From: Prevotella sp. E2-28
GTDB lineage: Bacteria > Bacteroidota > Bacteroidia > Bacteroidales > Bacteroidaceae
Length of the DNA stretch: 64,000 nucleotides
NCBI RefSeq assembly: GCF_022024055.1
Contig: NZ_CP091789.1
Coordinates: 1-64,000 of the forward strand
Reading direction: 5' to 3'
How positions within the stretch are numbered: the first letter of the stretch is position 1; each line of letters starts with the position of its first letter. Positions 21,007 to 40,695 of the stretch are shown in pieces. The position numbers and the translations under genes were made by a program. Below the pieces are notes generated by a model, which saw only the letters and a program-made list of their open reading frames with translations, had not been told where the DNA came from and did not search any database.

Positions 21007-22875
21007 TCAATCAGCCCCTCTTAATAGTGTTTCCAAATCACTCTGAGTATCAAGAACAATTCGAATACCGCCATTTTTGCGTGTTACGCCAAGCTCATCA
21101 AGACGTAATAATATACTATGAGCTGTATTGAAAGAGCATCTAAGTTCTTTCTGAAGAATTGCTTCTGAACACTTTCCTTTGGAAACAATCAATTTTACAG
21201 CCCTGATAAACAACTCATTATCAGTTTGTAGTGAATAGCTATGATTGTTGTTGGTTCCTGCCCTATCTGAATGTTTTAGGATATAATCGTTTTTGCCCCT
21301 CGGCTGCGTAGACAGATAGTGCAAAATGATACCCTTTGTCGAATCGTCAATCAGAGCATTGGAAACTCTCTTCGTTGTCACCATTGAACTATCCTGATAA
21401 AGAAGATCTCCAAAAGGCATAAGTTTTGTTGAATCGGAGGTGTCGGAGAATGCCTTGGCCATAATTGAATCTTCATGCTTAAATGTTATTTTCGCATGCA
21501 AGCCTTTCATTGTTTCATAGGTCATCACTGTTCTCTTGATACGATTCGCCGTAGCCATGACCAGGCAGATTCCACTATCCTGCCCGTTCTTTACCAGATT
21601 GGCCATTACTGAGTTGACGCTCTTTATTTCATTGAGTTCGGACAATTCATCTACAATAACCACAACATATGGCAAAAATTCATGTCCATCTTCAGGATTT
21701 AAGTCACCAGATAGATATTTTGTATTATACTCTCTGATATTGGCCGACGAAGATTTTGACAAAAGTTCTTTTCGATATACCATTTCCTGTTCAATATCCA
21801 TGAGAAGCATACTTGTGGAGTCCTCATCGTCAGCAATATATTTCCCGCTATGTGATTTTGCAAGATAATTCCTAGCTATTTTCTCATATGAATGATAGCT
21901 CGCATTATTGGAAGAAATAATAGCAAATTTCAAAATACATGGATTACAGCAGAACATCAAGGAAAGCATCATCGAATGAATGCAGTTTGTTTTTCCTGAA
22001 TTGGCCATGCCGCTAATTAAGACATGACCGACCTCATCAAGTCTGAATGAGAAAGGAGTCCCGTCAGGCTCGACACCTATAGAACAATGGAGTCCCCTAA
22101 ATTGCCCCTGCCCTGTTTCTATTCCTGCTGGGAAGAAGGAAATTGAAGATGAGTTATCTTTCGGGAGCTCGACACCGATCCTGTTTGTTCCAGGAATAGG
22201 AACGAGCATTCTGCTTCCGACAGGAGCTAAAGCATCCGATATTTTATCATGAAGATATATAAGCTTCGTCATTCGGACATCTGAGGATAGTGAAAATGAC
22301 AAGAAATTCATCACAGGAGTCTGGTATGAATCAACATTTTCTATCTCAATGTTATAATCATGAAGGACAGTCCTCACATGCTCCACAACAGCCGACATAT
22401 CATCCGAACAGACATTTGCCCCACTTTTCAGTAAGGAAAGATCCGGCAAGTGATAGTTGGGAATAAGCGAAAAAGGATCCTTTACGCTATATTTCCCCTC
22501 AATTATGATCTCCTCAATATCCTCCTCATCGGATTTTACATGTAGTATTGTGTCAAATGGAACTGTTTTAATACCCAGGCCATCTACCAACCACTGGAAC
22601 ACAAACATCAGTTTCTTAATCTGATAACCATAACGACTATGCATCTCCGATATATAAGAGCATATCTTCAGGCTTGGATCACCGGTTTCCATTGAATGCT
22701 GAAGGATTCTCTCAGAATAGCCGCCATCAATAATATCCATCAGAATACGTCTCTCTGCGCGTAAGTCCTTCAGAACGCCATAATCTGACAAGATATAAAC
22801 TAAACGACGTTCGTTGATTATATCCGTGCCGAAATCATTGATCGCCTTTTTTATCTCTATAAGAACTTTATCCAT
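21007..22875 (-). CDS. FtsK/SpoIIIE-like ATPase with N-terminal adaptor domain (second, divergent copy)
   Basis: It encodes 622 residues. Residues 1-100 are the adaptor module shared with four other proteins of the operon (NDFGTDIINERRLVYILSDY). An FtsK-like ATPase follows, with Walker A GMANSGKT at about 288-295 and Walker B VVVIVDEL at about 403-410. A C-terminal winged helix like FtsK gamma spans about residues 545-612 (SEAILQKELRCSFNTAHSIL). The VDxK segment after Walker A, kept in the other FtsK copy, is replaced here by IISSNN, so this copy is degenerate in part. There is no membrane segment. It is the last gene of the operon and overlaps the HNH gene by eight bases. Confidence 0.85.
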   Translation of the reverse strand: MDKVLIEIKKAINDFGTDIINERRLVYILSDYGVLKDLRAERRILMDIIDGGYSERILQHSMETGDPSLKICSYISEMHSRYGYQIKKLMFVFQWLVDGLGIKTVPFDTILHVKSDEEDIEEIIIEGKYSVKDPFSLIPNYHLPDLSLLKSGANVCSDDMSAVVEHVRTVLHDYNIEIENVDSYQTPVMNFLSFSLSSDVRMTKLIYLHDKISDALAPVGSRMLVPIPGTNRIGVELPKDNSSSISFFPAGIETGQGQFRGLHCSIGVEPDGTPFSFRLDEVGHVLISGMANSGKTNCIHSMMLSLMFCCNPCILKFAIISSNNASYHSYEKIARNYLAKSHSGKYIADDEDSTSMLLMDIEQEMVYRKELLSKSSSANIREYNTKYLSGDLNPEDGHEFLPYVVVIVDELSELNEIKSVNSVMANLVKNGQDSGICLVMATANRIKRTVMTYETMKGLHAKITFKHEDSIMAKAFSDTSDSTKLMPFGDLLYQDSSMVTTKRVSNALIDDSTKGIILHYLSTQPRGKNDYILKHSDRAGTNNNHSYSLQTDNELFIRAVKLIVSKGKCSEAILQKELRCSFNTAHSILLRLDELGVTRKNGGIRIVLDTQSDLETLLRGAD

Positions 22876-23689
22876 TGTCTCTGTATTTCTTCAAAAAATC
22901 ATCAAGAATCTTTTTCTCTGCCTGTGTCGGTGGAGTTTTCCTCACCTTAAAGTAGCATTCTGGGCACAAACAGACCAGGTTACTTTCCCTGTTATCTGCA
23001 GGCTTTTCATTTTTATGATGAACATAAAGGAAATGATAGTCAAAAGGCGTTTTCATCATAACATGACATGACTCACATGCATGATTTTTCTTGGCCTTGA
23101 AGTTTATTTCTATCTTTTTCCAGTCTTTTGTACAGCCACGGAAATCAACTTCAACATCACCTTCTTTTTCCAGAGGTTCGCCTTCAGCCTTTAGTTTCTC
23201 AACATATTCCCGTGAAGTTATTTTATATGGAAACTCATTACGAGCCATATTCCAGCAGTTGGTACAAAGAGGCAGGTCTGTTACTGTAGTTTCCTTATCA
23301 AAGTTGTCTTTATCTCGAACCTTAACTGCTTCTACATTTGCACCTCGATACTCTTGATTGAAAGTGCCCATCATCATGAAACTCCTAATAGTTTCACATT
23401 GGCGAATATGGAAACGGGGTTTTCCATGCTCTGTTAGCCTGTAATTACGCTTATACATGTAAATCTTTCTCAATTCTCCGTCTTCATCACGGTAGTAGAT
23501 ACCGTCATCTTTCATGATGATATTCCTTATCTCAGCCCGGCCAATGTCCACAGTATTCATGACCTTGTAGCCGCTGGCAGAACGGACATTGTAACCCATC
23601 GAATTAAGAAGGTTCTTCAATCCTGCGAAAGAATGTATCGGCGTTACCTCTTTCTTTTTATTATTTTCGGAAGAATTGACTTTTGCCAT
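22868..23689 (-). CDS. HNH-type zinc-finger nuclease candidate
   Basis: It encodes 273 residues from the ATG at 23689, two bases before the OmpA-like gene ends. An earlier in-frame start would overlap that gene. The C-terminal region holds a Cys4-type HNH core: HACESCHVMM, then FLYVHHKNEKPADNRESN, then LVCLCPECYF. The His-His, the Asn-Arg-x-x-Asn stretch and two CxxC pairs are as expected for an HNH nuclease. A further pair (LPLCTNCW) lies near residue 155. Residues 1-140 form a beta-rich domain that I do not recognise. Placement beside a MotA/MotB-like pair is the arrangement of type II Zorya, where ZorE is an HNH protein. Similarity to ZorE itself was not checked. Confidence 0.75.
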   Translation of the reverse strand: MAKVNSSENNKKKEVTPIHSFAGLKNLLNSMGYNVRSASGYKVMNTVDIGRAEIRNIIMKDDGIYYRDEDGELRKIYMYKRNYRLTEHGKPRFHIRQCETIRSFMMMGTFNQEYRGANVEAVKVRDKDNFDKETTVTDLPLCTNCWNMARNEFPYKITSREYVEKLKAEGEPLEKEGDVEVDFRGCTKDWKKIEINFKAKKNHACESCHVMMKTPFDYHFLYVHHKNEKPADNRESNLVCLCPECYFKVRKTPPTQAEKKILDDFLKKYRDNG

Positions 23690-23690
23690 A

Positions 23691-24398
23691 TCACTTTTTG
23701 TTTCTATTGACGAAGTTCTCCAAAACCTCCTCACCTAAGGTTACAATACGGAATTCCACACGCCGCGATTTAGCCTTATCTATTGAATCGCCTGATAATG
23801 CTGAAAATTTCTCATTAGCATCAAGGGCTTTGCCATATGACAGGCCATTTGCAGTAAACCAGTAATCAAGAAGTTTTTTTTGCTCAGGTGTATATTGTTC
23901 ATACGAAGGCATCTCTCTAATATATTTTAAAACATTATAGGCTCTTTCTTGCGACAAGAGGACATTCGAAAGATATGGATCTTTTCCATACTTCACCATT
24001 CGCAAGTCATCGGTATGGCCTTCAATACGGATTTCCTGGATACGGTCTCGCAATGTATCTGTCAACAGAATATTTAAATAACGGGGGATGAACTCATTTA
24101 ATATCTCCATAAATTTTGGTTTAATCTCGCCAGAACCTTGAGCAAAAAGAACCTCAGGTTCCTTGAACTTCATGGAAAGGTCCTTACCCACCACCATTTT
24201 CCATTTAGCAGTATCTCCCTTGAACTCACTGACAAGTCTGTCGTGCAGATGCTGCTTGGTTTCAACATAATCAGTAAGCACGGACTGATTATCTTGTACC
24301 TGTATCATATAAGCTACAGCAACAAACAAGAAAATGATCATCAGACCAGTCATCAAGTCAGATACGGATAGCCATACATTCTGTCTTTGCATAATCAT
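23691..24398 (-). CDS. MotB/ZorB-like OmpA-domain protein
   Basis: It encodes 235 residues. One N-terminal membrane helix is preceded by a conserved acidic residue (VSDLMTGLMIIFLFVAVAY, Asp at residue 14), the place of the proton-accepting Asp of MotB. Residues about 115-232 are an OmpA-like peptidoglycan-binding domain: IRIEGHTDD, then LLSQERAYNVLKYI, and KSRRVEFRIVT at the end. Together with the upstream stator-like gene, which it overlaps by four bases (ATGA), it has the make-up of a ZorA/ZorB or MotA/MotB ion-driven motor. It should sit in the inner membrane with the OmpA domain in the periplasm. ATG at 24398 or 24392. Confidence 0.88.
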   Translation of the reverse strand: MIMQRQNVWLSVSDLMTGLMIIFLFVAVAYMIQVQDNQSVLTDYVETKQHLHDRLVSEFKGDTAKWKMVVGKDLSMKFKEPEVLFAQGSGEIKPKFMEILNEFIPRYLNILLTDTLRDRIQEIRIEGHTDDLRMVKYGKDPYLSNVLLSQERAYNVLKYIREMPSYEQYTPEQKKLLDYWFTANGLSYGKALDANEKFSALSGDSIDKAKSRRVEFRIVTLGEEVLENFVNRNKK

Positions 24399-26242
24399 TT
24401 CTTGTTCTTAGTTATCATTGCCTGAATACAAGCATCAAGCTGTGCTAGAGTTTCACTTAAGCGGTCATAGAAGTGCTGATCAAGACCTTCAAGCTCTTTT
24501 CTGAGGAAGAAAGCACCATTCTGCATGAGTCCCTGTGCCTCCTCCAGATTCTTCTTCGTCTCTGCCCAGAAGTCATTATTGAAGTCTCTAAGTTTATCAA
24601 GTTCTTCAAGCTTCTTGATAAGCTGCTTCACTCCTTCGACAAAATCACGCTGCTTTTGAACCCACACATTGAGGTTACGGGTGTATTCCTGGTATTCTGC
24701 CATGTTCTTTTCATTAATCTCTGCAGCTTTCTTAAGAGAATTGGCAGTAGCCACGAAGTCTTTGTCTTTGGCCATAACCTGTTCTAGGCCTTCAATTATC
24801 TGATGGAGCCTGCCACCGTCACTTATAAGGGACTTAGTCTCGTCGCCAACCTTCTGTAAAGTCGTAGATGTCTCTTCGAAGTCTGTACTCATCTGTTTAT
24901 ACTGCGATGTTAGAGCGACAATCATCTCCTTGTTCTCCTGCTGCCACTGGTTCATATTAGCCACACTCTGATTGAGTTGTTCAAAGTTCTCCTGAATAAG
25001 TTTGTTTATGAGTGCGCTCATCTGTTTCTCAAACTCCAGAGTAACGCCCTTCATCACCTCAACTAGGGCTTCTGTATTACTCTTCCTTAGCAGTTCTGAG
25101 AACTCATCAAACTTCTCCGTCAGAAGTTCATTCGTCTCTTTCATCTTTTCCTCTATCTCAGTTACCTCATCCCTGATTACTGGACTGAGCTTCTTTATCT
25201 CGTCAATTATCTCCGACTGGGTACTATATGTTCCTGTAGATGCTTCGACAATCTCAGCTACGTTCTCATTAATAGACTTGATATTGTCAACCTGTGAGTT
25301 AACTCCCTCCTCCACGTTACCGACAGATATTGTCAGGCTCTCAAGTCTGCTATCAACAGTATTGTTGATTTCATCCATCTTACTTGTCTGTCCTTCCAAG
25401 AGGGCGGCTTCTGCGACCATCTGTCCTATAATTGCTGTTTCTGCGCCTTCAACAGAAGCACTAATCTTGTCTGTTGAGCTACTAATAGAATCTCTGACCT
25501 CGCTAAGTTTAGACAAAGCCGCATCAGAGTTTTTAGTTATACTTTCGAGATTACTATGAAGTAGATTCTTTATTTCTTCCGTATCTTTACTAATTGCAGA
25601 CATGCTATCTGCCATTGACTCTGATTTCTTAGAAATACCTTCAAGTTTCTCACCGAGCAGGTTCTTTATCTCATCCGAATCTTTATTGATTGCAGACATA
25701 CAGTCTGCCATTGACTGAGAAATCTTGTTTTGAGCTTCCATGAATTTAGAAAGGGAGCTCATAAAATTGTCTTGGGAATCCGTAAATTTCTCCAGACGTT
25801 TTGACATCTCGTCAAGCTTCTGGTCTGAGGATTTCTCCATCTTGGATATCGACTGCGTTATCAGGCCTGCAGCCTGATTGATATCTGACACTCCCTGGTC
25901 TTTCTGATCAAATCCGGAACTGACAAGCTTTGACAAGATAATGGAACCTATCATACCTGTCAGAGAAGTGAAGAAGGCCGTCTTTAGTCCACTTAACAGT
26001 AATGGAATACTCGCATCAAGATTCTGCGGGTCAAAATTGATAAGACCAAGAGTGATACCGGCAAATGTTCCTAACACTCCTAATGACGAAATAATTGTAG
26101 GCAAGCTTTCTATCCACCTTCTCTTTTCGATTAGGTGGTCACTGTTCTTCTGGGAAAAGAAATAAATTAGTGCCCAGACGAAGGCCAAAAATACAAAGGC
26201 CGTCAATCCATAAGTAATATAATTCAAAACTTCGCCACTCAT
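24395..26242 (-). CDS. MotA/TolQ/ZorA-like stator protein with long coiled-coil tail
   Basis: It encodes 615 residues. Three membrane segments lie at about residues 6-28, 47-70 and 80-105. The signature SLGVLGTFAGITLGLINFD followed by LLSGLKTAFFTSLTGMIGS is characteristic of the MotA/ExbB superfamily and of ZorA in particular. From about residue 115 to the end the protein is almost continuous heptad-rich coiled coil, with internal copies around residues 180-260 (SMADCMSAINKDSDEIKNLL and SMADSMSAISKDTEEIKNLL). Long cytoplasmic tails of this kind are a hallmark of ZorA. With the downstream OmpA-like protein it should form a proton-driven motor. It starts three bases after the adaptor membrane protein ends. 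Confidence 0.88.
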   Translation of the reverse strand: MSGEVLNYITYGLTAFVFLAFVWALIYFFSQKNSDHLIEKRRWIESLPTIISSLGVLGTFAGITLGLINFDPQNLDASIPLLLSGLKTAFFTSLTGMIGSIILSKLVSSGFDQKDQGVSDINQAAGLITQSISKMEKSSDQKLDEMSKRLEKFTDSQDNFMSSLSKFMEAQNKISQSMADCMSAINKDSDEIKNLLGEKLEGISKKSESMADSMSAISKDTEEIKNLLHSNLESITKNSDAALSKLSEVRDSISSSTDKISASVEGAETAIIGQMVAEAALLEGQTSKMDEINNTVDSRLESLTISVGNVEEGVNSQVDNIKSINENVAEIVEASTGTYSTQSEIIDEIKKLSPVIRDEVTEIEEKMKETNELLTEKFDEFSELLRKSNTEALVEVMKGVTLEFEKQMSALINKLIQENFEQLNQSVANMNQWQQENKEMIVALTSQYKQMSTDFEETSTTLQKVGDETKSLISDGGRLHQIIEGLEQVMAKDKDFVATANSLKKAAEINEKNMAEYQEYTRNLNVWVQKQRDFVEGVKQLIKKLEELDKLRDFNNDFWAETKKNLEEAQGLMQNGAFFLRKELEGLDQHFYDRLSETLAQLDACIQAMITKNKK

Positions 26243-26245
26243 TGT

Positions 26246-27946
26246 TTATATTTTATTAATTGAGTTATTATGATTTTGTTTTCTCTTATTTTGTTCGTCT
26301 AAAAGACGTTTTTGTTCTTCTTCATCTTCTTTACGTTGCAACTCCTCTTGCCTTTTCTGTTCCATCTCTTCTTGTCTTTTAGCCTCTTCAATCCTTCTGT
26401 CAATAAGGTTATCTAATTGTCTGTCTATGTAGATTACGTTATCACTGCTACTTCCATAGTGCCTACCAATTGACAATTGAATCAGGCAGTTGTTATAAGT
26501 CCAAAAATATTTGTTGTTAAATGAAAAATAAGATATAGAATTATTCTTTTTGTTGTCATAATACACTTCACTTCTTCCATATTTATTTTTATACATTTCG
26601 AGAAGGTTGTGATCACTATATTCAGGAAGTAGTTCTATCGCAAAGATCCTATTTTTATATGAAAAGAGATTAACCACGATACTGTCATTATCCCATTCAG
26701 TTCTTATGCTATATACGCTATCGACATAAGACGAATAGTCACGTCCTTTAACCAATAATGAGGAATGATTATAATAGCCAGTCTCATCATTGAGATAATG
26801 ATAATCCTTAGAGGTGGAAACAAAAGCAAGGCAGCTGTCCATATTATCTCTTAATCTAAAATCGGCAAAAGATAAAGTTTGAACTTGTTGACTTCTATTA
26901 TAAATAGTTTCAATATAGGTATTATTACAACTGCAATAGATTTGTGGAAAATTTTTATAGCAGATCCATCCAATACAAATTATAACTGCTGATAAGCCTA
27001 AACCGAGCAGATATTTCAAGTTCATTAGAGACTGGAAAACTGGTTTCATCCATTCTATACCACCAGAATAATACTTTCCCTGAGTAAAACTGTCAAATAA
27101 CCCATTATAGAAAGGAGAAGTGTCAATTCCTGCAATTTCTGCGCCATATCCAGCACATGCAAGGTACACAAATCCTACAATAATAGTAAACAGTTCAGAT
27201 AGGAAAAATGGACTTTCCCAACTGTACCAATAGCCTAAAAACTCCAACAAATCTCTATCATATCCAAGAGGACCAAACATCATGTAAACCCCTGTAAACA
27301 CCAATAATCCACATAACATACCGCCAATAATTGAATTAGGGCATACCTTTTTCAACCCCCATGTACAAGGCAAGATAGTTAGTGAATGTAATAGAATCAG
27401 CATTAGCGTCGTAAAAAACAATCCACATTGTCCAGTTTGAAATAAAATCATTATGAAAGGAGAAATAAACACTCCAATATAACCAAGCAGAAGAAATAAC
27501 AGACTCTGTACTGAAAAACTTTTGTTTGGATTCTTCGTTTTCTGTTTTGATGAATTAGGATTGCCAGAGTTGTTTGGTTTATTATTATTCTTCTTTGGCT
27601 TTGGTTTACTTGGTTTATTGATTTTGTTATAGTCAGATTGAGAGATTACATTACTACCTATCGCCAAAGAATAAAGTATTTCAGAAACGACATTTTTGTC
27701 ATATCCATATTGCGTCGCCAGACGGGTTGCAGTGTCCTCTACTTTTATCTTTATATTTTTTTTCGTACATGTAAGTAAGTCTGAGGAACACCCATCATTA
27801 ATAATTGACTTTAAAATATTGACATACGCAGGATTGTTACGACTTGGGTACAAGTCATTGAATATATGCACAAATCGGCTTTCTGTGATAATTTGATTGC
27901 CGTATTTGTTTGTTATCTGACTTATTATGTTTATAACATCAGTCAT
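26246..27946 (-). CDS. Multi-pass membrane protein with N-terminal adaptor domain
   Basis: It encodes 566 residues. Residues 1-100 are the shared adaptor (NKYGNQIITESRFVHIFNDL, ending near LATQYGYDKNVV). A Lys/Asn/Pro linker leads to about five membrane segments between residues 145 and 335. A soluble domain follows, and a C-terminal Gln/Glu/Lys coil (about 520-560, EEMEQKRQEELQRKEDEE). No transport or enzyme motif is visible. Being next to the stator gene and carrying the adaptor, it may tether the cytoplasmic enzymes to the motor at the membrane. The ATG at 27946 directly follows the FtsK stop with no gap. Confidence 0.75.
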   Translation of the reverse strand: MTDVINIISQITNKYGNQIITESRFVHIFNDLYPSRNNPAYVNILKSIINDGCSSDLLTCTKKNIKIKVEDTATRLATQYGYDKNVVSEILYSLAIGSNVISQSDYNKINKPSKPKPKKNNNKPNNSGNPNSSKQKTKNPNKSFSVQSLLFLLLGYIGVFISPFIMILFQTGQCGLFFTTLMLILLHSLTILPCTWGLKKVCPNSIIGGMLCGLLVFTGVYMMFGPLGYDRDLLEFLGYWYSWESPFFLSELFTIIVGFVYLACAGYGAEIAGIDTSPFYNGLFDSFTQGKYYSGGIEWMKPVFQSLMNLKYLLGLGLSAVIICIGWICYKNFPQIYCSCNNTYIETIYNRSQQVQTLSFADFRLRDNMDSCLAFVSTSKDYHYLNDETGYYNHSSLLVKGRDYSSYVDSVYSIRTEWDNDSIVVNLFSYKNRIFAIELLPEYSDHNLLEMYKNKYGRSEVYYDNKKNNSISYFSFNNKYFWTYNNCLIQLSIGRHYGSSSDNVIYIDRQLDNLIDRRIEEAKRQEEMEQKRQEELQRKEDEEEQKRLLDEQNKRKQNHNNSINKI

Positions 27947-30025: not shown

Positions 30026-30039
30026 ATTGATAACTAACT

Positions 30040-32658: not shown

Positions 32659-32662
32659 CTTA

Positions 32663-33727: not shown

Positions 33728-33738
33728 CTATTACAAAT

Positions 33739-34833
33739 TTAGTTAATCAAAGCCAACACATTCAGGATAAAAGTACAGTCAAACCCTTGGAAAACAAGTC
33801 TTTTGACATTGTTACCGTCTCTCTGGACTTCCATGCCATCAGAGAAAGGGTTAATCCCTATTATCTTTGAATATGGAACCTTGATGCTACGCATCTGTCC
33901 CATAAATATAATATGCTTGTTTGTCACATACAGACTCCCAACTCCCATATTTTCCATAAAGCTGGTTTCGACAGGATGCCCTTTAAAGCCACCCGTCCGA
34001 TATGTAACACCTTTAATTATTCTGAAGCTGAAGCCGCCCGTACGACCTACATACTCCCTGCGTACCTTCTCTTGGAACATCGTGACATTGTTATAGCACC
34101 AGAATGCGGTCTCTCCCCTCCCCAGAATGATAGGAGCTTGAAGATTATATCTGGGAGTCCTTCCTGCCTGAATATCACTCAATATGGAAGCCTGTCCCAT
34201 TTCCTCAATAGGAGTTCCTTTGAGAGATGGAGGCAGATTAATCAGGGATAATCCCAATGTTCCGATATACTCGTCAACTTTCTGCTGTTCTGATGGAGAC
34301 ATCAGGCCATCCTTCAGGAAATTCTTCCCTGCCTGTCCAAGCATCTCATAGTAAGCCTCCTGTTCCTTCTGCACAGTAAGGGGAAGTGTCCTCATCACCT
34401 GCTGAGAGATCTGCAATGACCGTTGCAACGGCTTCTGGCCGGTAAAGTACTCAGCCATAAAGCCACGAATCATCTTCTGACAAAGACGATCCAGAGCACC
34501 AGACCCGTTAATATCTTGATATGAGACGCCGATATTCGTAATAAACTCCTTAATCTTGTCAAGATGAGAAGAATGGAATGGCCAATGGATTGTATTCGTC
34601 CACTCATCTATACATTTTGAGGATGATTCAGCTCTGTCTTTGTCTGAAATATAGTTGTTCTGTTTGACATGATTAGCTACACGGACTATCTCCGACATAG
34701 GAGTAGCCCCCTTGAAATAAGAACGAATGGCACCTTCCAAGATTGTTACACCCTGGTTGTGACTCTCCTCACACTCCTTGTGAGCATGCGAGAAAATCCC
34801 AGCGCTCCTACCACAATATTTACAATCTGCCAT
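33739..34833 (-). CDS. Zinc-ribbon protein with C-terminal PH-like domain
   Basis: It encodes 364 residues. A short N-terminal zinc ribbon (ADCKYCGRSAGIFSHAHKEC) is followed by about 190 residues of helices. A C-terminal beta domain (about 235-364) contains GVGSLYVTNKHIIFMGQMRS, then IKVPYSKIIGINPFSDGMEV. The 'LYVTNKHIIF' strand followed by 'IPYSKI' is typical of bacterial PH-like/GRAM-like domains, which bind lipids or partner proteins. There is no transmembrane segment. The zinc ribbon could contact DNA or the kinase. It lies between two other operon genes with gaps of nine and eleven bases. Confidence 0.65.
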   Translation of the reverse strand: MADCKYCGRSAGIFSHAHKECEESHNQGVTILEGAIRSYFKGATPMSEIVRVANHVKQNNYISDKDRAESSSKCIDEWTNTIHWPFHSSHLDKIKEFITNIGVSYQDINGSGALDRLCQKMIRGFMAEYFTGQKPLQRSLQISQQVMRTLPLTVQKEQEAYYEMLGQAGKNFLKDGLMSPSEQQKVDEYIGTLGLSLINLPPSLKGTPIEEMGQASILSDIQAGRTPRYNLQAPIILGRGETAFWCYNNVTMFQEKVRREYVGRTGGFSFRIIKGVTYRTGGFKGHPVETSFMENMGVGSLYVTNKHIIFMGQMRSIKVPYSKIIGINPFSDGMEVQRDGNNVKRLVFQGFDCTFILNVLALIN

Positions 34834-34842
34834 ATTTCTATT

Positions 34843-35670
34843 TTAGAATCTGAAACTGATTCGGGGACTGAAGGAAATAGGTTCGTACTCCCGGGGTATT
34901 CGAGCAGCTTCGCGCCCATCCATAGTTGGAACCTGTCTTGCAGCGAAGATACCGACAACAGTATTGGCACCATTATCACAACATTTCTTGGCTAATTCGC
35001 CAAACAACTTTAGTTTATCTCTATTAGCCCAGATGAAAGGCAATACCACATCTTTTCCCTTAATGACATCTGTATTAATTTCCAATGCTCCCTTATCTTT
35101 CTTGAAGATATCAGTCAAGATCGGACCTTGGCCAAGGAATACAGACAGTCTGGTTGTCATGTCCTGTATCCGAGAATACTCCAAAGTGAGACAGTCATGC
35201 TCTTCGTCCCATGCATCTACACATTCCTGTGTATTTGCAATGATAGGATTACGCTGTAGGATGTTGACCAAATCGTCATCATTATTAATGGCGTGGCTGA
35301 TATTCTCGCCCGGATCAGAGAGGAATTCTTCACATAAAGTATCTTTATGATGCTTATTATACTTTCTTTTCTGATCATCCATCCTATGAACAGTTTCATC
35401 AAAATAGCGAGTCAATGCATACCATCTATAGAAACCTACCCTGCCAATTGCACTAAAACATCTAGAATTAAGTTTCTCTACAGGAATTTGCGCCTCATTG
35501 GACTGGGCTGGATCGAGGGAATCATCAAAGTGGCATGAGTCTTTATACATCTCATACATTTCATTGAACCAGTAGTCTGCATCGACAGTGAACTGGCTGG
35601 GATCCATTCCCAATTCCTCTACGGGGATAAACATTGAACGAAGATCGTCCTCATTGATGTCGTTTGCCAT
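34843..35670 (-). CDS. Uncharacterised operon protein
   Basis: It encodes 275 residues. The N-terminal third is acidic and rich in aromatics (DADYWFNEMYEMYKDSCHFD). The middle is helical, and the C-terminal end is basic with the phrase REYEPISFSPRISFRF. No transmembrane segment, signal peptide or known motif is visible. The stretch GKDVVLPFIWANRDKLKLFG resembles a strand-helix unit but no fold can be named. It is tightly packed in the operon (two bases after 35673-36572, nine before 33739-34833), so it is probably a structural or specificity subunit of the system. Confidence 0.55.
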   Translation of the reverse strand: MANDINEDDLRSMFIPVEELGMDPSQFTVDADYWFNEMYEMYKDSCHFDDSLDPAQSNEAQIPVEKLNSRCFSAIGRVGFYRWYALTRYFDETVHRMDDQKRKYNKHHKDTLCEEFLSDPGENISHAINNDDDLVNILQRNPIIANTQECVDAWDEEHDCLTLEYSRIQDMTTRLSVFLGQGPILTDIFKKDKGALEINTDVIKGKDVVLPFIWANRDKLKLFGELAKKCCDNGANTVVGIFAARQVPTMDGREAARIPREYEPISFSPRISFRF

Positions 35671-35672
35671 AA

Positions 35673-36572
35673 CTATTCCTTTTTAATTAATTTAAAATTC
35701 CATTCATTTGACATTTGATTCCTGCCTTTACCAGACACCTGTCCTTTGATAAATCTCCCGGTATATTTGATAAAGTCATTGGCCGTGAAAATTTCCAGTT
35801 CATCACCATTCAGATACCATCGGCCAGTACCATACAACGTTGAGTCAAGTATATTATCAGGAAGGAATCGTACGTTATTATCATCAAGATCCTGGACATC
35901 GTTGACTATTACCCATTCGCCAGATGTCAGGTTATCCATGGTCATTCCATCATTCCTCCGTTTGGCTGACCATTCCCAGCCGAAAGGATTATATGAGCTT
36001 GTAGCAGTCCCTGAAATAGTATCATCTACCAAAACACCTTCATAAGAAACAAGATCCGGCATATAGATTTCAACCCTATCCCCAGATAGTTTCCAGCAAT
36101 ATTTCGTTCCTGATGATGCTCTTGCGAATCCATCCCTGCTAATAGTCAACTGCATGGTCTTGTCCTTTTTATAGGTAAAATCCCAATAACCGATTATACT
36201 TACATCATCAGGTGAGGAGGGATAATCCTTTAGGACGACAGTAACAGATGAGATCAACTGAAGTGCATACGCCACATTTTCCAAACAGAAGAGGACATTA
36301 TCTTGTTTGAAGCCATACTTCTGAGACGCTGAATTTGCTAATCGATGAAGACTGTTCCTTGTTTGGGCATCATCCTGATTAGTCCGTTTCTCCCAAAGAG
36401 TATAGATCTCATCCATATATTGAGCGACACAAAGCTGCTTGAAAACATTCCGTATAGAAACATTTTCCCCGAAAGCTTGCATATCTGCAAGATAGTTGAT
36501 GAATCTCTCATCCTTGATAAAAGACTCATCTTCCATGTCAACGGTCAACCTTATCGCTTCATACAATTCCAT
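35673..36572 (-). CDS. Adaptor-domain protein with C-terminal beta-repeat region
   Basis: It encodes 299 residues. Residues 1 to about 108 carry the shared adaptor (EDESFIKDERFINYLADMQA), with an insertion (WEKRTNQDDAQT) before the final helices. Residues about 120-299 look like two lipocalin-like or META-like beta units. The first contains YWDFTYKKDKTMQLTISRDG and later VEIYMPDLVSYEGVL. The second contains GTGRWYLNGDELEIF, then YTGRFIKGQVSGKG. The repeated Gly-x-Trp-x-Phe and Asp-x-Val/Leu-Glu-Ile pattern supports internal duplication. It could bind a small ligand that triggers the system. It lies 26 bases after the PP2C gene. Confidence 0.7.
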   Translation of the reverse strand: MELYEAIRLTVDMEDESFIKDERFINYLADMQAFGENVSIRNVFKQLCVAQYMDEIYTLWEKRTNQDDAQTRNSLHRLANSASQKYGFKQDNVLFCLENVAYALQLISSVTVVLKDYPSSPDDVSIIGYWDFTYKKDKTMQLTISRDGFARASSGTKYCWKLSGDRVEIYMPDLVSYEGVLVDDTISGTATSSYNPFGWEWSAKRRNDGMTMDNLTSGEWVIVNDVQDLDDNNVRFLPDNILDSTLYGTGRWYLNGDELEIFTANDFIKYTGRFIKGQVSGKGRNQMSNEWNFKLIKKE

Positions 36573-36598
36573 ATCTGTCTGATCTAATCAAAAGGACA

Positions 36599-37981
36599 CT
36601 ATCTCCTTCTTTTCTTCCGATGGTTCTTCTTCTGGGCTTGTAGCTTCAATCTGTGCTTTTTGGATTCCAGAGGACTAAGTTTCTTTGCCTGATGTTTAGG
36701 TGATTCTTTATGACTGTTCTGTTCCTCCGGAATCGCCTCTGTAGTGACTTCCTTTTCGGGTTCCTTTGGCTCCTCCTCTATTACTACCTCATCTGATTTT
36801 GGTTGTTCTTGAGTTGGAATAACATAGTCTTCATCCTCAATAAAATATGGCCTGACCATACCTTCAGGGAGTTCTTCTACCAGATGATTATGTTTTTCGG
36901 CCAGTTTCTCGCGAGCTGAGAAAGCACGTTCCAAATCCTTGACGGCATATTTAAACTCAATTTTTGACTTTTCGTCAGAGAAAGACACCAAAGAGTCAAT
37001 CCGGTTCTTCAGATGGTTGATTTTCTCTTCAATATCATTGAGTTCCTTGTTTGCCCTGTCAATCTGGTATCGAATAAAGAGGTTGATATTCTCCTTAACC
37101 TGGTCTAAATTGAAGACACAGGCCACAGACATATCATCCTTACTGCCGATCTTACTTAATTTGGGAAGCGTCTCAATTACAGATGATTTTGTTGCTTTAA
37201 CACCTTCTTTGGCCAACATCTTCAAAATCTGGATATAGAAATTGACCAGATTTGTAGTCTCTCCAAATGAATCATCTATACCATCAGAACCAAGTAATAC
37301 AGCTATTGGGAATTTCCCATCACCCTCATAACAGTATCTGAACTCATCAATGGGCGAGTTATCGCACAATGAGGTCGTTTCATTAAGGAAACACTTCTCA
37401 TCCCAAGGGATGGGTTCTGTCCAAATAGGATCTTTCTGGAAGAAGATACATTTCCCGTCACCGATATGGAATGCAAACCAATACTTGGGTGTCTGGACAT
37501 ACGTCATCAGGGTACATCCGTAATGCTTCTCGAACGTCTCTGACTTCAAGAATTCGTCCAAATACTGCTGGGGGACGTTAGCCTTTTCCCATTCTGTCAG
37601 AGGCTCAGACTTTGCATGAACCTTTATCTTCTCATTCCACTTATATATAATGGAAGAGAACAACTGTCTGAAAGCGGAGTCTGCTTCGGATAAATCCTCA
37701 GCATCTTTTAGAGAGCTGGTCGGTCCGACGGCTGTGAATTTCTTCTTTTCGAAAAGGCTATCACCTACTTTTTCAACAAAGAAGGTAACGGCTTCTAAAG
37801 TTGCTTCAACAGCACATCGGGATCCGATATCACTCCTAAAATATCGATCACCACCATGTCCGTCACATACAATAGCAACGGCAAGGTCATCAACGATGCT
37901 CGAAAAGGAATAATCCTGGCCAACCTTATTGATTGCCTTATGACTTTCGCCCTCACATGAGTAGTGAAAAGCGTCTATCAT
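36599..37981 (-). CDS. PP2C-family protein phosphatase
   Basis: It encodes 460 residues. Residues 1 to about 290 form a PP2C-like domain: AINKVGQDYSF, then VAIVCDGHGGDRYFRSDIGS, then GCTLMTYVQ, then WFAFHIGDGKCIFF, then VLLGSDGIDDSFGE, and GSKDDMSVACVFN. The metal-binding Asp residues are present. Residues 290-380 form a coiled coil, and the tail is Pro/Glu-rich and ends in a strongly basic run. It is the phosphatase of the kinase/vWA/PP2C set known as the TerY-P triad and should reverse the action of the kinase at 38764-40047. It starts one base after the vWA gene ends. Confidence 0.9.
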   Translation of the reverse strand: MIDAFHYSCEGESHKAINKVGQDYSFSSIVDDLAVAIVCDGHGGDRYFRSDIGSRCAVEATLEAVTFFVEKVGDSLFEKKKFTAVGPTSSLKDAEDLSEADSAFRQLFSSIIYKWNEKIKVHAKSEPLTEWEKANVPQQYLDEFLKSETFEKHYGCTLMTYVQTPKYWFAFHIGDGKCIFFQKDPIWTEPIPWDEKCFLNETTSLCDNSPIDEFRYCYEGDGKFPIAVLLGSDGIDDSFGETTNLVNFYIQILKMLAKEGVKATKSSVIETLPKLSKIGSKDDMSVACVFNLDQVKENINLFIRYQIDRANKELNDIEEKINHLKNRIDSLVSFSDEKSKIEFKYAVKDLERAFSAREKLAEKHNHLVEELPEGMVRPYFIEDEDYVIPTQEQPKSDEVVIEEEPKEPEKEVTTEAIPEEQNSHKESPKHQAKKLSPLESKKHRLKLQAQKKNHRKKRRR

Positions 37982-37982
37982 A

Positions 37983-38735
37983 TTATCCCCAATCGTCTAT
38001 GTACTTGCTACTATCAACACCTGATGCACTTTCAGCTCCGTCAACTTGAGAGGCTGCCTGCTGCACATCCTTGATTACCTGATCCTGCTTGGATGTATCA
38101 CCTGCGGAACTGCTCTTGCTTCCTACCTGAGAAGATGTTACAGACACTATTCTGATAATCATCTTGAGTGCCTCGATATTATGCACAGTGATAACTGCTT
38201 CTGGAGATCCCGTGAAATCCTTGAGCACATCCTTGTCAGCGTCATCTCCGATAGCAATAGCAATCCTTATTGCTTTTTTAAACCAGTTATTTTCCTTCAG
38301 TGCTTTAAGGCCAGACTGGAAATCGTCGGTTGGACCACCATCGGACAGAAGAATGATGGCTGGAGCATAGTAGCCGCTACCAGTCTCAGACTTCGTCATG
38401 TAGCCATGTGACATCGAGAGCTTTGAATCAAGCTCCTTACAGGCTTGTCCAAGAGATGTCAAACCACCAGCAGCAACATCTTGCCAGATAAAGTCCTCTG
38501 CCAATTTTGGTTCATCATATAACCAGTTAACGCCGCTAGAAAATTCCAGAGCGGCCACTTTGATTTCTGCATCAGGATTGTTCTCCTGAATTTCTTTTAG
38601 AAGTGGTAATACATTGGGAATAGCATCATTAACTGCACCAATTTTGTTACCTTCCATACTACCTGATGTGTCAATCAGGAAAAACAGGTTCATCGTTCTG
38701 CGAGGAACACTTACAGTTTCATCCATTAAACTCAT
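37983..38735 (-). CDS. TerY-like von Willebrand A (vWA) domain protein
   Basis: It encodes 250 residues. The MIDAS metal site is intact: FFLIDTSGSM (DxSxS) near residue 22, GGLTSLGQACKELD and ILLSDGGPTDDF. The length and the plan (one vWA domain, then about 40 Ser/Gln-rich residues) match TerY of tellurite and stress clusters. vWA proteins of the TerY-P triad are thought to act as metal-dependent assembly platforms for the kinase and phosphatase. The adjoining genes are exactly those two. No other ter gene (TerC, TerD, TerB) is in the window. Two ATGs (38735 and 38726) are possible. Confidence 0.9.
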   Translation of the reverse strand: MSLMDETVSVPRRTMNLFFLIDTSGSMEGNKIGAVNDAIPNVLPLLKEIQENNPDAEIKVAALEFSSGVNWLYDEPKLAEDFIWQDVAAGGLTSLGQACKELDSKLSMSHGYMTKSETGSGYYAPAIILLSDGGPTDDFQSGLKALKENNWFKKAIRIAIAIGDDADKDVLKDFTGSPEAVITVHNIEALKMIIRIVSVTSSQVGSKSSSAGDTSKQDQVIKDVQQAASQVDGAESASGVDSSKYIDDWG

Positions 38736-38763
38736 AATTCACGCTTTTTAGTTATTAATCTTT

Positions 38764-40047
38764 TTATGCTTTAATTTCTGCTTTTGCACCTGGAGCACCA
38801 GGTATGCTAGCTCCAAATGATATTTTAAGTCCATTCAGTACTGGCATAAAGTCTTTCGGTTCTACGACCTTAACCTTTCCACTTGGTGTGTCGATATGCC
38901 AACTTGCCTTCGTCAGATTTCTGATTACCATCAATTTGGGATCATTAGGATAGACCTCAACAACACCATCTGCGATATTGTCATTGTCAACATATAACTT
39001 CGTTCCGGGAGTTAGAATCAGACTACGCTGACCTATTTTGAGCTGTTTGGTTATATCTATGTCCTTACCACAATTTATGCACTTAACAGCTCCCTTGCTT
39101 AAGTCAAGTAACGATTCCTCATGGCAATGAGGACAAATAATCAATTCATCCCTGACCTTGCAGATAATCTTCTGCCATTCCTGTTCAAGCATACGCTTAT
39201 TGGGATTTGCAAGCTTATCCTTGCTGAACTGATCAATAAAGGCCTCTTTGAGAATAGATGGGAATACCGGCCATCTTCTTAAGACATTCTGATGAACACC
39301 CCTTACAGGAAGATTAGATTTGTCATTTTTATCATAGATAAACAAAGCCTCACTTCCATAGAATTTCTTTTCAAACTCCTCAGTCATACAGGGACATGCA
39401 ACAACCCTTGCACCCTCAAACGGGTGATTTGCAAAGAAAAGCATAAACAGGATAACAGACAGAGAGAACCTGTCGCTATACTTGTCAGGCTTACCTCCAC
39501 CAACAATCTCAGGAGCCATATAGCGTGCTTTCCCCAATATTCCAGACATCTCGCCTTGTGGCATCACGTTGTCGTTATCACAGATAAGTACATCGCCATC
39601 GGTCGGCCGTATGAAGAAGTTTCCATCATTCAAGTCTTGATAACTGTAGCCATGCCTGTGAAGCATCATAAAGCCGTCACATATCTTCATGGCTGATGCC
39701 AAAAGTGCATCAAACGACTTGAAATGCTTTTTCGCCAACAGATAGTTTCCAAACTCGTAATAGTCGTTCGGACGTAGCTTCATAATATAGCCGAAGCTAT
39801 CACGTTCCTTCACTGTCAAGTATTCCGGCCAGATAAAGGCATCGGACGGAGCCTTGGCATTGACATTATGATCCAGATTCTTGTAAAAGGCATCACTGGG
39901 TTTGTTGTGATACCATTTCAAAGCCATCTTCTGACCTGCGAGGTCGACGAGATACACAATACCCTGTCCTCCGCGGCCCAATTCTCTAATAACCGTTGCC
40001 TGACTGCCTATCGTCAAGGTAACTTTATCATTTGGTTTTAGTTCCAT
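38764..40047 (-). CDS. Ser/Thr protein kinase with C-terminal zinc ribbon
   Basis: It encodes 427 residues. Kinase motifs are visible: glycine loop ELGRGGQGIVYLVD, Lys in KMALKWYH, catalytic loop YSYQDLNDGNFF, metal-binding VLICDNDNV (a variant of DFG with the Asp kept) and ARYMAPEIV. It thus seems active, although the usual His-Arg-Asp is Tyr-Gln-Asp. A zinc ribbon follows (LIICPHCHEESL, then AVKCINCGKDID), with a C-terminal beta domain resembling FHA-like or sandwich modules (about residues 340-427). This kinase type accompanies TerY and PP2C genes in TerY-P triads. The targets are unknown; the adaptor proteins and the helicase are candidates. Confidence 0.9.
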   Translation of the reverse strand: MELKPNDKVTLTIGSQATVIRELGRGGQGIVYLVDLAGQKMALKWYHNKPSDAFYKNLDHNVNAKAPSDAFIWPEYLTVKERDSFGYIMKLRPNDYYEFGNYLLAKKHFKSFDALLASAMKICDGFMMLHRHGYSYQDLNDGNFFIRPTDGDVLICDNDNVMPQGEMSGILGKARYMAPEIVGGGKPDKYSDRFSLSVILFMLFFANHPFEGARVVACPCMTEEFEKKFYGSEALFIYDKNDKSNLPVRGVHQNVLRRWPVFPSILKEAFIDQFSKDKLANPNKRMLEQEWQKIICKVRDELIICPHCHEESLLDLSKGAVKCINCGKDIDITKQLKIGQRSLILTPGTKLYVDNDNIADGVVEVYPNDPKLMVIRNLTKASWHIDTPSGKVKVVEPKDFMPVLNGLKISFGASIPGAPGAKAEIKA

Positions 40048-40058
40048 ATTATATTGTT

Positions 40059-40424
40059 TTAAAATCCACCACCTTTAAGATTGAAATTCTCAGCAATCTC
40101 AACATCACCAGAACAACCACATGTAGGACATGTGACCGTTTTCTGTCCGTGATAGCATACAACTGCACCACAACTACCACACACATAAAACCGCTTTGTA
40201 TGACAATATGGACAGCCAGGATAATTACTATCAAGAGTTATCATACCACTGACATGATTTGCGTCGAAGCTTTCTCTGTGAGCTTTTTCTCTGTCGATCT
40301 TAAATGCCCACACAAACTTAAGAGTATTGCCTTGGGGGTCTACAGTAATCCCAAAAGACTTCTTGGTCTCTTCGCATACCGCCAAAACAGCAAAAGCTTC
40401 TTTACTTACAGGAGTTATAGCCAT
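40059..40424 (-). CDS. TerY-C-like zinc-binding protein
   Basis: It encodes 121 residues. The N-terminal half is beta-rich (FGITVDPQGNTLKFVWAFKI). The C-terminal half has a double zinc site: YPGCPYCHTKRFYVCGSCGA, then VVCYHGQKTVTCPTCG. The spacing fits the TerY-C metal-binding domain that is usually fused to or beside the TerY vWA protein. Here it stands alone as the second gene of the operon. It probably helps the vWA protein or the kinase to assemble. It starts 18 bases after the regulator gene ends. Confidence 0.7.
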   Translation of the reverse strand: MAITPVSKEAFAVLAVCEETKKSFGITVDPQGNTLKFVWAFKIDREKAHRESFDANHVSGMITLDSNYPGCPYCHTKRFYVCGSCGAVVCYHGQKTVTCPTCGCSGDVEIAENFNLKGGGF

Positions 40425-40442
40425 AGGTCTTTAGTTTTTTGA

Positions 40443-40640
40443 TTAGTTACTGGTCAGCAATTCTCTCTTGTCTACATTCAGAAGCTCCGATATTCTATCA
40501 AGCGTCTGAAGATCTGGCTGAGAGGTGTTTGTACACCATTTACTGACCGTTGCTGGATTCCGGCCTAACTGCTCAGCCAACCATTTACTTGTCCTTTTCT
40601 TCTCAACTAGGACAACTTTGATTCTATTTAAATCCTTCAT
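40443..40640 (-). CDS. Small XRE-family HTH regulator heading the operon
   Basis: It encodes 65 residues that are entirely a Cro/CI-type helix-turn-helix: KKRTSKWLAEQLGRNPATVS, then KWCTNTSQPDLQTLDRISEL. It is the first gene after a consensus promoter and probably controls its own operon. Solitary small XRE proteins of this length are common heads of accessory operons in Bacteroidota. Confidence 0.85.
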   Translation of the reverse strand: MKDLNRIKVVLVEKKRTSKWLAEQLGRNPATVSKWCTNTSQPDLQTLDRISELLNVDKRELLTSN

Positions 40641-40663: not shown

Positions 40664-40695
40664 CAAAGATAATTAATTATTCCTAAAAAAGCAAA
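40664..40695 (-). promoter_or_regulatory. Promoter of the 16-gene operon
   Basis: On the minus strand there is a -33 TTTG (40692-40695), a 20-base spacer and a -7 TATCTTTG (40664-40671). Both boxes fit consensus exactly. The start codon of the XRE gene is 23 bases downstream of the -7 box. I see no second convincing promoter within the operon, although internal ones were not excluded. Confidence 0.85.

What the first reader, a model, noticed from the sequence alone, without database searches (positions are those of the whole stretch)
21007..40640. A 16-gene operon joining a TerY-P triad, a Zorya-like motor, two FtsK translocases and a helicase-exonuclease
Seen: one minus-strand run of 16 genes with gaps of at most 29 bases and one consensus promoter at 40664-40695. 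It encodes an XRE regulator, a TerY-C-like zinc protein, kinase, vWA, PP2C, a helicase with exonuclease, two FtsK ATPases, a MotA/MotB-like pair, an HNH protein and an FGE-type protein. Known: TerY-P triads (kinase, PP2C, vWA) accompany predicted DNA-processing genes, and ZorA/ZorB pairs drive the Zorya anti-phage system with a nuclease. Inferred: a phosphorylation-controlled, membrane-anchored DNA-degrading machine, probably defensive. I am not aware of this exact gene set as a described system.
Basis: partly seen in the sequence, partly recalled or inferred. Interest (0 to 1): 0.95.

Follow-up and report, generated by a model that had tools for sequence, protein, structure and literature searches.

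The report
Zorya motor inside a TerY-P operon
One bacterial operon of 16 genes carries all three genes of a known anti-phage motor (type II Zorya) between genes of a larger kinase-phosphatase cluster, and five of its proteins share a domain, without a consistent Pfam match, that likely ties them into one machine predicted to capture and destroy invading DNA; related loci carry the same core next to other defence systems instead, so it would be a reusable control unit for immunity.

Summary
Sixteen minus-strand genes (21007-40640) lie -8 to +28 bases apart behind one exact Bacteroidota-type promoter. The "Zorya-like" part is a complete type II Zorya set: ZorA, ZorB and the HNH gene, which is ZorE. 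(1) Five proteins (a beta-barrel protein, the FGE protein, both FtsKs and a 5-TM protein) share a ~105-residue N-terminal helical domain ("NTD"); a profile search found it nowhere else in this genome and Pfam has no consistent match. (2) The 275-aa orphan has a phosphoribosyltransferase-like fold without a recognisable PRPP motif. (3) Relatives show modularity: a core (TerY-P triad, zinc/GRAM-like protein, NTD protein) recurs in 7 loci. One has nine of these genes directly behind BREX, another follows a type ISP restriction enzyme, a third has an NTD fused to a helicase-nuclease. ZorABE was seen inside such an operon only here; four intact relatives lack the core. Best reading: a phosphorylation-gated defence machine in which NTDs likely tether FtsK pumps and regulators beside a Zorya nickase and a helicase-exonuclease. 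Function and adaptor role are inferred. New variant of a known kind.

The parts
40664..40695 (-). Bacteroidota-type promoter TTTG-N20-TATCTTTG
   Evidence: exact match; 4 in window, 0.94 expected
40443..40640 (-). XRE/Cro-type HTH regulator, 65 aa
   Evidence: Pfam HTH_26 38.3 bits
40059..40424 (-). TerY_C-like zinc protein, 121 aa
   Evidence: Pfam TerY_C 30.4 bits over cut-off 28.4
38764..40047 (-). Ser/Thr kinase with C-terminal zinc ribbon (TerY-P kinase)
   Evidence: Pfam Pkinase; DLNDGN motif; C305, C308, C323, C326 invariant in 6 aligned
37983..38735 (-). VWA (TerY-like), MIDAS motif present
   Evidence: Pfam VWA; DTSGSM
36599..37981 (-). PP2C phosphatase, metal-site motifs present
   Evidence: Pfam PP2C_2 92.7 bits
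35673..36572 (-). U299: NTD plus two small beta barrels
36228..36572 (-). NTD copy on U299
   Evidence: leave-one-out HMM E 1.5e-10 in a set of 16 proteins
34843..35670 (-). U275: phosphoribosyltransferase-like fold, no recognisable PRPP motif
33739..34833 (-). GRAM: N-terminal CxxC...HxxC zinc-type motif and C-terminal GRAM/PH-like part
   Evidence: weak GRAM and Voldacs matches in 3 of 3 aligned members, below cut-off in the window's; motifs
32663..33727 (-). FGE: NTD plus FGE-sulfatase (C-type-lectin-like) domain
   Evidence: Pfam 145.6 bits
33404..33727 (-). NTD copy on FGE
   Evidence: leave-one-out HMM E 2.6e-15 in a set of 16 proteins
30040..32658 (-). UvrD/Rep helicase with inserted DEDDh exonuclease
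   Evidence: Pfam UvrD and RNase_T; motifs present; PDB relatives PcrA, PolC exonuclease
27947..30025 (-). FtsK1: NTD, FtsK alpha, motor and gamma domains
   Evidence: Pfam; Walker A and B present
29576..29893 (-). NTD copy on FtsK1 (residues 45-150)
   Evidence: leave-one-out HMM E 8.9e-14 in a set of 16 proteins
26246..27946 (-). TM566: NTD, five predicted TM segments, C-terminal domain
   Evidence: hydropathy
27623..27946 (-). NTD copy on TM566
   Evidence: leave-one-out HMM E 5.2e-14 in a set of 16 proteins
24395..26242 (-). ZorA (type II), MotA-like with long tail
   Evidence: PADLOC ZorA2 551.7 bits
23691..24398 (-). ZorB (type II), MotB/OmpA-like
   Evidence: PADLOC ZorB2 268.2 bits
22868..23689 (-). 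ZorE, HNH nickase family (likely start at the ATG ending at 23689)
   Evidence: PADLOC ZorE2 226.6 bits; HH...N core conserved in 6 of 6
21007..22875 (-). FtsK2: NTD, FtsK alpha, motor, weak gamma
   Evidence: Pfam; Walker A and B present
22561..22875 (-). NTD copy on FtsK2
   Evidence: leave-one-out HMM E 9.5e-15 in a set of 16 proteins

Best explanation
The operon encodes a complete type II Zorya set (ZorA, ZorB, ZorE) inside a TerY-P kinase-phosphatase-VWA operon, and its 16 products likely act as one phosphorylation-gated, membrane-tethered anti-phage machine. Proposed order of events. (1) ZorAB responds to infection at the envelope (recalled) and brings the nickase ZorE to the membrane (published for another Zorya II, inferred here). 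(2) The kinase/PP2C/VWA triad with its zinc partners, the GRAM-like protein and the PRTase-fold protein sets the armed or idle state: inferred. (3) The shared NTD is predicted to pair with itself and so tie the two soluble FtsK translocases to the 5-TM protein and to the FGE and beta-barrel proteins; FtsK normally carries its own membrane anchor (recalled), and here anchor and motors are separate proteins bearing the same domain. (4) FtsK hexamers would reel in DNA at the membrane, ZorE would nick it, and the UvrD-DEDDh protein would unwind from nicks and digest the strand: inferred. The core is a chassis; relatives carry BREX, a type ISP restriction enzyme or a helicase-nuclease in place of Zorya.
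For: Type II Zorya identity. Tight packing, with ZorABE flanked on both sides by NTD genes. NTD on 5 of 16 proteins, each recovered by a profile built without it at E 1.5e-10 to 2.6e-15 in a set of 16 proteins, best non-NTD protein 0.15; exactly five hits at E up to 0.001 in the whole genome, all in this operon (12 of 14 first-look candidates scored). In two searches of 393 genomes of the order (the draw looks the same, not verified), full-length GRAM was in 4 and the NTD in 6, which include those 4 (hypergeometric 1.5e-8). In 7 of 7 independent full-length-GRAM loci an NTD gene is present. In L052 an NTD heads a 2302-aa helicase-MTES_1575 nuclease. In L084/L085 the core follows BrxC-methylase-PglZ-BrxL with a 1-base gap. 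In L040 it follows a type ISP R-M enzyme and includes an NTD-FtsK. Papers: ZorAB recruits ZorE, a nickase (PMC11890865, passages); Druantia III, whose DruE is a helicase-nuclease, and Zorya II synergise through shared DNA intermediates (PMC13192584, start of abstract and passages).
Against: No experiment. ZorABE joined to this core was seen once: none of the other six core loci shows it (two are cut contigs), and four intact ZorABE sets stand without the core. No Zor protein carries an NTD, nor did the BREX or ISP proteins of the relatives match the NTD profile, so these would be coupled by co-expression or another contact. NTDs within the operon are only 12-29% identical to each other, while orthologs between loci are 43% (FGE) and 50% (FtsK1): old, divergent copies that may each have private partners. 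In three relatives a single NTD protein was found in the whole genome. Three of 7 GRAM-positive genomes, those with split, partial or weak GRAM, show no NTD, and two NTD-positive genomes have it outside any TerY-P locus in the fetched stretches. The profile included NTDs from three of the genomes it counts; an earlier profile without them also found those three. The hypergeometric figure ignores relatedness.
Confidence: 0.5

Rival explanations
1. Two independent defence systems share one transcript: a TerY-P/NTD system and a type II Zorya cassette that landed between its genes. They are co-expressed but do not touch.
For: ZorABE stands without the core in four intact relatives of the family; no Zor protein has an NTD; the core is found without ZorABE in the six other core loci, two of them cut contigs; superoperons of TerY-P-bearing CoCoNuTs with BREX, type I RM and Druantia III are published (PMC11090510, passages).
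Against: Zor genes are packed at -8 to +3 bases between TM566 and FtsK2, both NTD-bearing; the core is in line with other established systems as well (BREX, type ISP), which looks like recurrent pairing rather than one accident.
Confidence: 0.3
2. The NTD is not a self-pairing adaptor but a common docking or substrate module read by the kinase/phosphatase pair or by the GRAM protein, so that five effectors are switched by the same signal without forming one particle. (Not exclusive of the best explanation's defence role.)
For: NTD presence tracks GRAM and TerY-P genes: all 4 full-length-GRAM genomes among 6 NTD-positive of 393; in three relatives only one NTD protein was found in the genome, so no second NTD protein is there to pair with.
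Against: A conserved docking surface was not seen: only D30 is invariant in 13 NTDs.
Confidence: 0.3
3. Not defence: an envelope-stress or DNA-transport/segregation system that reuses stator, FtsK and repair-type helicase parts.
For: FtsK, FGE-type and OmpA/MotB-like proteins have housekeeping relatives; two relatives (L050/51, L054) carry peptidoglycan-binding and radical-SAM proteins, one also an ion channel, and no nuclease among the proteins scanned (two L054 proteins were not scanned).
Against: Defence-specific ZorA2/B2/E2 scores; core directly joined to BREX and a type ISP restriction enzyme in relatives; patchy occurrence (full-length GRAM in 4 of 393 genomes; U275 in 1 of 201 family genomes).
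Confidence: 0.1

Closest known systems
Zorya type II (ZorA, ZorB, ZorE)
   Same: All three genes, in the order A-B-E, with best scores to the type II models
   Different: Described as ZorA and ZorB plus ZorE (PMC11890865, passages); here the genes sit inside a TerY-P operon between NTD-bearing genes
TerY-P triad (kinase with zinc ribbon, PP2C, TerY-like VWA) and its associated DNA-processing modules
   Same: All three genes and a TerY_C zinc protein; FtsK, helicase and nuclease neighbours are a known theme (PMC11090510 and PMC4978471, passages; Anantharaman 2012 not held, not read)
   Different: FtsKs here are FtsK-alpha/motor/gamma proteins with an NTD, not the EssC-like FtsK with WXG100 of those passages; NTD, GRAM and PRTase-like proteins and Zorya are not mentioned in the passages read
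Effector-associated domains (EADs) of NTP-dependent conflict systems (PMC7159879, passages and section 30 read)
   Same: Small helical non-enzymatic domain repeated on several proteins of one operon, some of them effectors
   Different: No consistent Pfam match; copies next to each other are not each other's closest relatives; core is TerY-P, not MoxR-vWA or GAP1
CoCoNuT type II/III-A systems
   Same: TerY-P with large nucleic-acid effectors; superoperons that include BREX (PMC11090510, passages)
   Different: No McrB/McrC-type Pfam match among the 16 proteins
BREX-related capture (BRC) and other HerA/FtsK capture systems (PMC12839542, passages)
   Same: FtsK/HerA translocase proposed to bring invader DNA to a nuclease
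   Different: No PglZ, ORC-type ATPase or DUF4007 Pfam match in the window operon
DRT-associated UvrD helicase (PADLOC RTasHel)
   Same: Best PADLOC match of the UvrD-DEDDh protein, 212.9 bits over residues 2-866
   Different: No reverse transcriptase family was matched in the operon

Membership tests
Zorya type II | ZorA (MotA-like, long tail) | tested here: met
   ZorA2 551.7 bits
Zorya type II | ZorB (MotB-like, periplasmic OmpA-type domain) | tested here: met
   ZorB2 268.2 bits; OmpA Pfam; SVSDLMTGL segment with an Asp conserved in 3 of 3 aligned (ion-channel role recalled)
Zorya type II | ZorE HNH nickase gene next to ZorB | tested here: met
   ZorE2 226.6 bits; HNH core conserved in 6 of 6
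Zorya type II | anti-phage activity through ion flow and nicking | not testable with these tools
   needs experiment
TerY-P triad | STK with zinc ribbon, PP2C and TerY-like VWA as neighbours | tested here: met
EAD | small, all-helical, no enzymatic features | tested here: met
   U299 model: seven helices in residues 3-103; no enzyme family matched consistently
EAD | copies on a core component and on effectors in the same operon | tested here: met
   five copies in the window; two each in L023 (U299, FGE) and L040 (NTD304, FtsK1); but one each in G758, G781 and G947
[quoted passage not shown]
   12-29% within the operon against 43-50% to orthologs of FGE and FtsK1
EAD | sequence homology to a named EAD | tested here: inconclusive
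   only scattered weak Pfam matches for 13 members, each family hit by 1 or 2; whether all EADs are in Pfam was not checked
CoCoNuT | McrB/McrC homologs | tested here: not met
   no such Pfam match at E up to 0.1 in 16 proteins
CoCoNuT | CnuH/CnuE proteins | not tested
   no models of them were at hand
BREX-related capture (BRC) | PglZ, ORC-like AAA+ and HerA/FtsK together | tested here: not met
   only FtsK matched in the window operon
Type VII-like FtsK/WXG100 module of TerY-P clusters | EssC-type FtsK with a WXG100 partner | tested here: inconclusive
   FtsK2 scores 62.6 bits to EssC against 99.8 to FtsK in NCBIfam (FtsK1 not run there); the only WXG100 match is a weak one in the ZorA tail
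Active type I phosphoribosyltransferase (for U275) | PRPP-binding acidic pair and TG loop | tested here: inconclusive
   pattern (recalled) absent in 22 of 22 U275 sequences, but it also rings in only 3 of 6 PRTase places of the own genome (8 places, 6 examined)

The most novel reading that the evidence does not exclude
A TerY-P/GRAM/NTD chassis is a general bacterial control unit into which whole defence systems (Zorya II, BREX, type ISP restriction, helicase-nucleases) are plugged, with a new homotypic domain acting as a bacterial counterpart of death-fold adaptors that gathers FtsK DNA pumps, a membrane anchor and sensors around the plugged-in nuclease.
Probability: 0.35. Interest if true: 0.88.

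Novelty: new variant of a known kind. Interest (0 to 1): 0.74.

Why it matters
If true, defence systems that are studied one by one also occur as cartridges of a common, phosphorylation-controlled chassis, and ZorABE would be working with DNA pumps and a helicase-exonuclease that could turn nicks into destruction. It gives a concrete, testable adaptor domain and a natural experiment (the same core with Zorya, BREX or R-M) on how defence modules are coupled. It would also warn that tools which call 'Zorya II' or 'BREX' alone miss the larger system.

Tried and rejected
Rejected: (a) that the HNH, MotA-like and MotB-like genes are only Zorya-like: type II models score them far above chance. (b) That the full 16-gene set is conserved: U275 was found in 1 of 201 family genomes (own) and its alignment in 1 of 395 class genomes (own); scanning genome contigs gave one locus, L022. 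(c) CoCoNuT or BRC membership by Pfam. (d) TerB as origin of the NTD or of GRAM's middle: suspected from memory, no Pfam support. (e) EAD membership in the strict sense.

Led nowhere: viral-contig scans with TM566, FtsK2, ZorA and FtsK1 alone found no relatives; PDB sequence search with U275 found none; the GRAM protein matched no phage record and one Moraxella plasmid weakly. The marginal NTD hit in G350 (E 7e-4) lies in an HD-domain protein and is treated as chance. Of the 10 genomes with a ZorE match, own included, four were left out of the ZorABE count: G112, a partial match with no ZorA or ZorB nearby, and G098, G043 and G073, matches of 37 to 49 residues that were not followed. Dropped before counting core loci: L041 and L084 (same contig as L023), L085 (identical to L084 over 11,189 of 11,189 bases), L083 (same contig as L040), and the split, partial or weak GRAM matches G735, G741 and G662.

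The odds did not change.


Full report
WHAT IS THERE. The window opens contig 2 (205,045 bases) of a 3.76-Mb, two-contig genome. Sixteen minus-strand genes fill 21007-40640, with spacings of -8 to +28 bases, behind an exact TTTG-N20-TATCTTTG promoter at 40664-40695 (4 such sites in the window, 0.94 expected). From first to last: XRE regulator; TerY_C-like zinc protein; Ser/Thr kinase with zinc ribbon; VWA; PP2C; U299; U275; a zinc/GRAM-like protein (GRAM); FGE; UvrD helicase with an inserted DEDDh exonuclease; FtsK1; TM566; ZorA; ZorB; ZorE; FtsK2. Motifs for kinase, MIDAS, PP2C metal sites, Walker A/B, DEDDh and HNH are present.

ZORYA. PADLOC models score the stator pair and the HNH protein as type II Zorya: ZorA2 551.7, ZorB2 268.2 and ZorE2 226.6 bits. 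In 201 genomes of the family, ZorE matched in 10, own included. Five others (E 1.8e-40 or better) sit with ZorA and ZorB: G042, G075, G077 and G008 intact, G071 with interrupted ZorA and ZorB at a contig start. None of the five has a neighbour similar to the kinase, VWA, PP2C, GRAM, FtsK or NTD in the stretches fetched, by ORF comparison and by tblastn. One resemblance was seen: G075 has an HTH 57% identical to the operon's XRE regulator about 1 kb beyond ZorE. ZorABE thus normally stands without this core, and its placement here is the oddity.

A SHARED DOMAIN. Five of the 16 proteins begin with, or carry near the N-terminus, a related stretch of about 105 residues: U299 1-115, FGE 1-108, FtsK1 45-150, TM566 1-108, FtsK2 1-105. 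A profile from any four finds the fifth at E 1.5e-10 to 2.6e-15 (for a set of 16 proteins), while the best of the other eleven proteins reaches only 0.15. In the U299 model (mean pLDDT 86.5) it is seven helices. Thirteen members gave only scattered weak Pfam matches at E up to 1, each family hit by one or two. A profile search of the whole genome found exactly these five places (12 of 14 first-look candidates scored); among the 389 other class genomes of that search one marginal hit appeared, in an HD-domain protein. TM566 has five predicted TM segments after its NTD, while neither FtsK has an N-terminal TM segment.

RELATIVES OF THE OPERON. The GRAM protein was found in 7 of 393 genomes of the order, four full-length including the own genome. 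One Muribaculaceae contig (L022) and two IMG/VR contigs add more. Removing duplicates leaves 7 independent loci with full-length GRAM, counting the window. An NTD gene is present in 7 of 7; kinase, VWA and PP2C (tblastn) in 6 of 7, the seventh contig (L054) ending just upstream of the NTD gene. What is attached differs. Window: UvrD-DEDDh, two NTD-FtsKs, ZorABE. L023/L084 (BREX type): BrxC, methylase, PglZ and BrxL, then 1 base later zinc protein, kinase, VWA, PP2C, GRAM, U299, U275, a second U275 copy, FGE and UvrD-DEDDh, that is nine of the window's genes with GRAM moved forward; the UvrD is 62% identical to the window's (the BREX Pfam scan was run on L085, identical DNA, and on the L023 BrxL). 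L040: a 1648-aa type ISP restriction enzyme directly before the zinc gene, then kinase, VWA, PP2C, an NTD protein, GRAM and an NTD-FtsK at the contig end. L052/53: NTD at the head of a 2302-aa DUF4011/AAA_11-AAA_12 helicase/MTES_1575 nuclease, with a DNA/RNA non-specific endonuclease and an FtsK carrying TPRs instead of the NTD. L022: a DEAD-type helicase protein, followed by two phage-type integrases. L050/51 and L054: an NTD protein with one predicted TM segment, peptidoglycan-binding and radical-SAM proteins; L050/51 also an ion channel. ZorABE occurs in 1 of 7; L040 and L054 are cut contigs.

CO-OCCURRENCE. In a search of 393 genomes of the order (apparently the same draw as for GRAM, not verified) the NTD profile hit 6: the four with full-length GRAM plus G903 and G963 of one genus (hypergeometric 1.5e-8; that figure ignores relatedness). 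Against: the profile contained NTDs of three of these genomes, though the earlier profile without them also found the three; three genomes with split, partial or weak GRAM show no NTD; the G903 and G963 NTD proteins lie outside TerY-P loci in the fetched stretches; and G758, G781 and G947 each have a single NTD protein, so homotypic pairing there would be of one protein with itself.

HOW IT LIKELY WORKS. Shown: the genes, their order, the domains and the recurrence above. From papers: ZorAB is an ion-dependent motor complex that brings the nickase ZorE to the membrane on infection (PMC11890865, passages); Druantia III, whose DruE is a helicase-nuclease, and Zorya II synergise through shared DNA intermediates (PMC13192584, start of abstract and passages); TerY-P triads are hypothesised to be phosphorylation switches for restriction and DNA-processing modules (PMC11090510 and PMC4978471, passages); EADs are proposed homotypic couplers (PMC7159879, section 30). 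Inferred: NTDs tie the FtsK pumps to the 5-TM protein and to sensors, pumped DNA is nicked by ZorE and then unwound and digested by UvrD-DEDDh, and the triad gates the whole. The weakest links are the physical coupling of ZorABE, which lacks an NTD, and the assumption that NTDs pair with each other rather than with a common reader.

NOVELTY. Type II Zorya, TerY-P modules and multi-system superoperons are all known. No paper in the library holds Zorya with kinase, FtsK and PP2C. Three hold Zorya and TerY: in the passages read of PMC10889362 they are separate systems, PMC12458937 mentions TerY-C-like zinc motifs of helicases, and PMC10855318 was seen in the listing only. TerY-P with FtsK is described for H. 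pylori and CoCoNuT loci with WXG100 or EssC-like partners. The search for BREX with TerY returned ten papers, of which the relevant ones were those already read in passages or listed; PMC12839542 on BREX holds neither PP2C nor Zorya in its main text. The library lacks most subscription papers and the 2012 TerY-P survey, so a description there cannot be excluded. I therefore call it a new variant of a known kind: Zorya built into a TerY-P chassis, with an adaptor-like domain that has no consistent Pfam match and interchangeable defence modules.

Noticed in passing
G000:C2 about 189750-190454 (+) and 192120-192836 (-) (L030 750-1454 and 3120-3836): Two more U275-like proteins flank a 469-aa gene elsewhere on the same contig, with no TerY-P gene seen in 35 kb around.
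   Followed up: partly
protein P0056 (367 aa): The U299 beta-barrel pair is fused to a DarT-type (PF14487) domain in a metagenomic protein.
   Followed up: no
L073 322-1839 and L070 14509-15813: NTD-bearing proteins of genus g274 outside any TerY-P locus in the fetched stretches; in G903 near SPFH/Band_7, WYL and PPDK_N genes.
   Followed up: partly
L084/L085 1-9553: BREX genes (BrxC, methylase, PglZ, BrxL) directly precede the TerY-P core on an IMG/VR contig; identical DNA occurs in a second contig.
   Followed up: yes
L015 2240-2413: An HTH protein 57% identical to the operon's XRE regulator lies about 1 kb beyond ZorE of a stand-alone Zorya II locus in the same genus.
   Followed up: no
L024/L025, plasmid NZ_CP068110 of Moraxella osloensis: A GRAM-like C-terminal stretch (28% identity) beside VWA, TerD, AAA and large UvrD genes: a possible distant Ter-type cluster.
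   Followed up: no
L082, plasmid CP157007 of Methylomonas: A TerY-P triad beside Sel1-repeat and, further on, TraG-like genes; no NTD or GRAM match in the 32 kb seen.
   Followed up: partly
window 42315-43121: ADP-ribosylglycohydrolase gene on the plus strand about 1.7 kb beyond the operon's promoter.
   Followed up: no
window 17888-20728: 946-aa M48-type peptidase protein downstream of FtsK2, 278 bases away, same strand.
   Followed up: no
L053 1937-6261: Two Fe-hydrogenase-like proteins and a SpoIIE phosphatase upstream of GRAM in G781; may be a separate operon.
   Followed up: no
G000:C2:147227: A 3238-aa open frame with a weak PRTase match, below the family cut-off.
   Followed up: no
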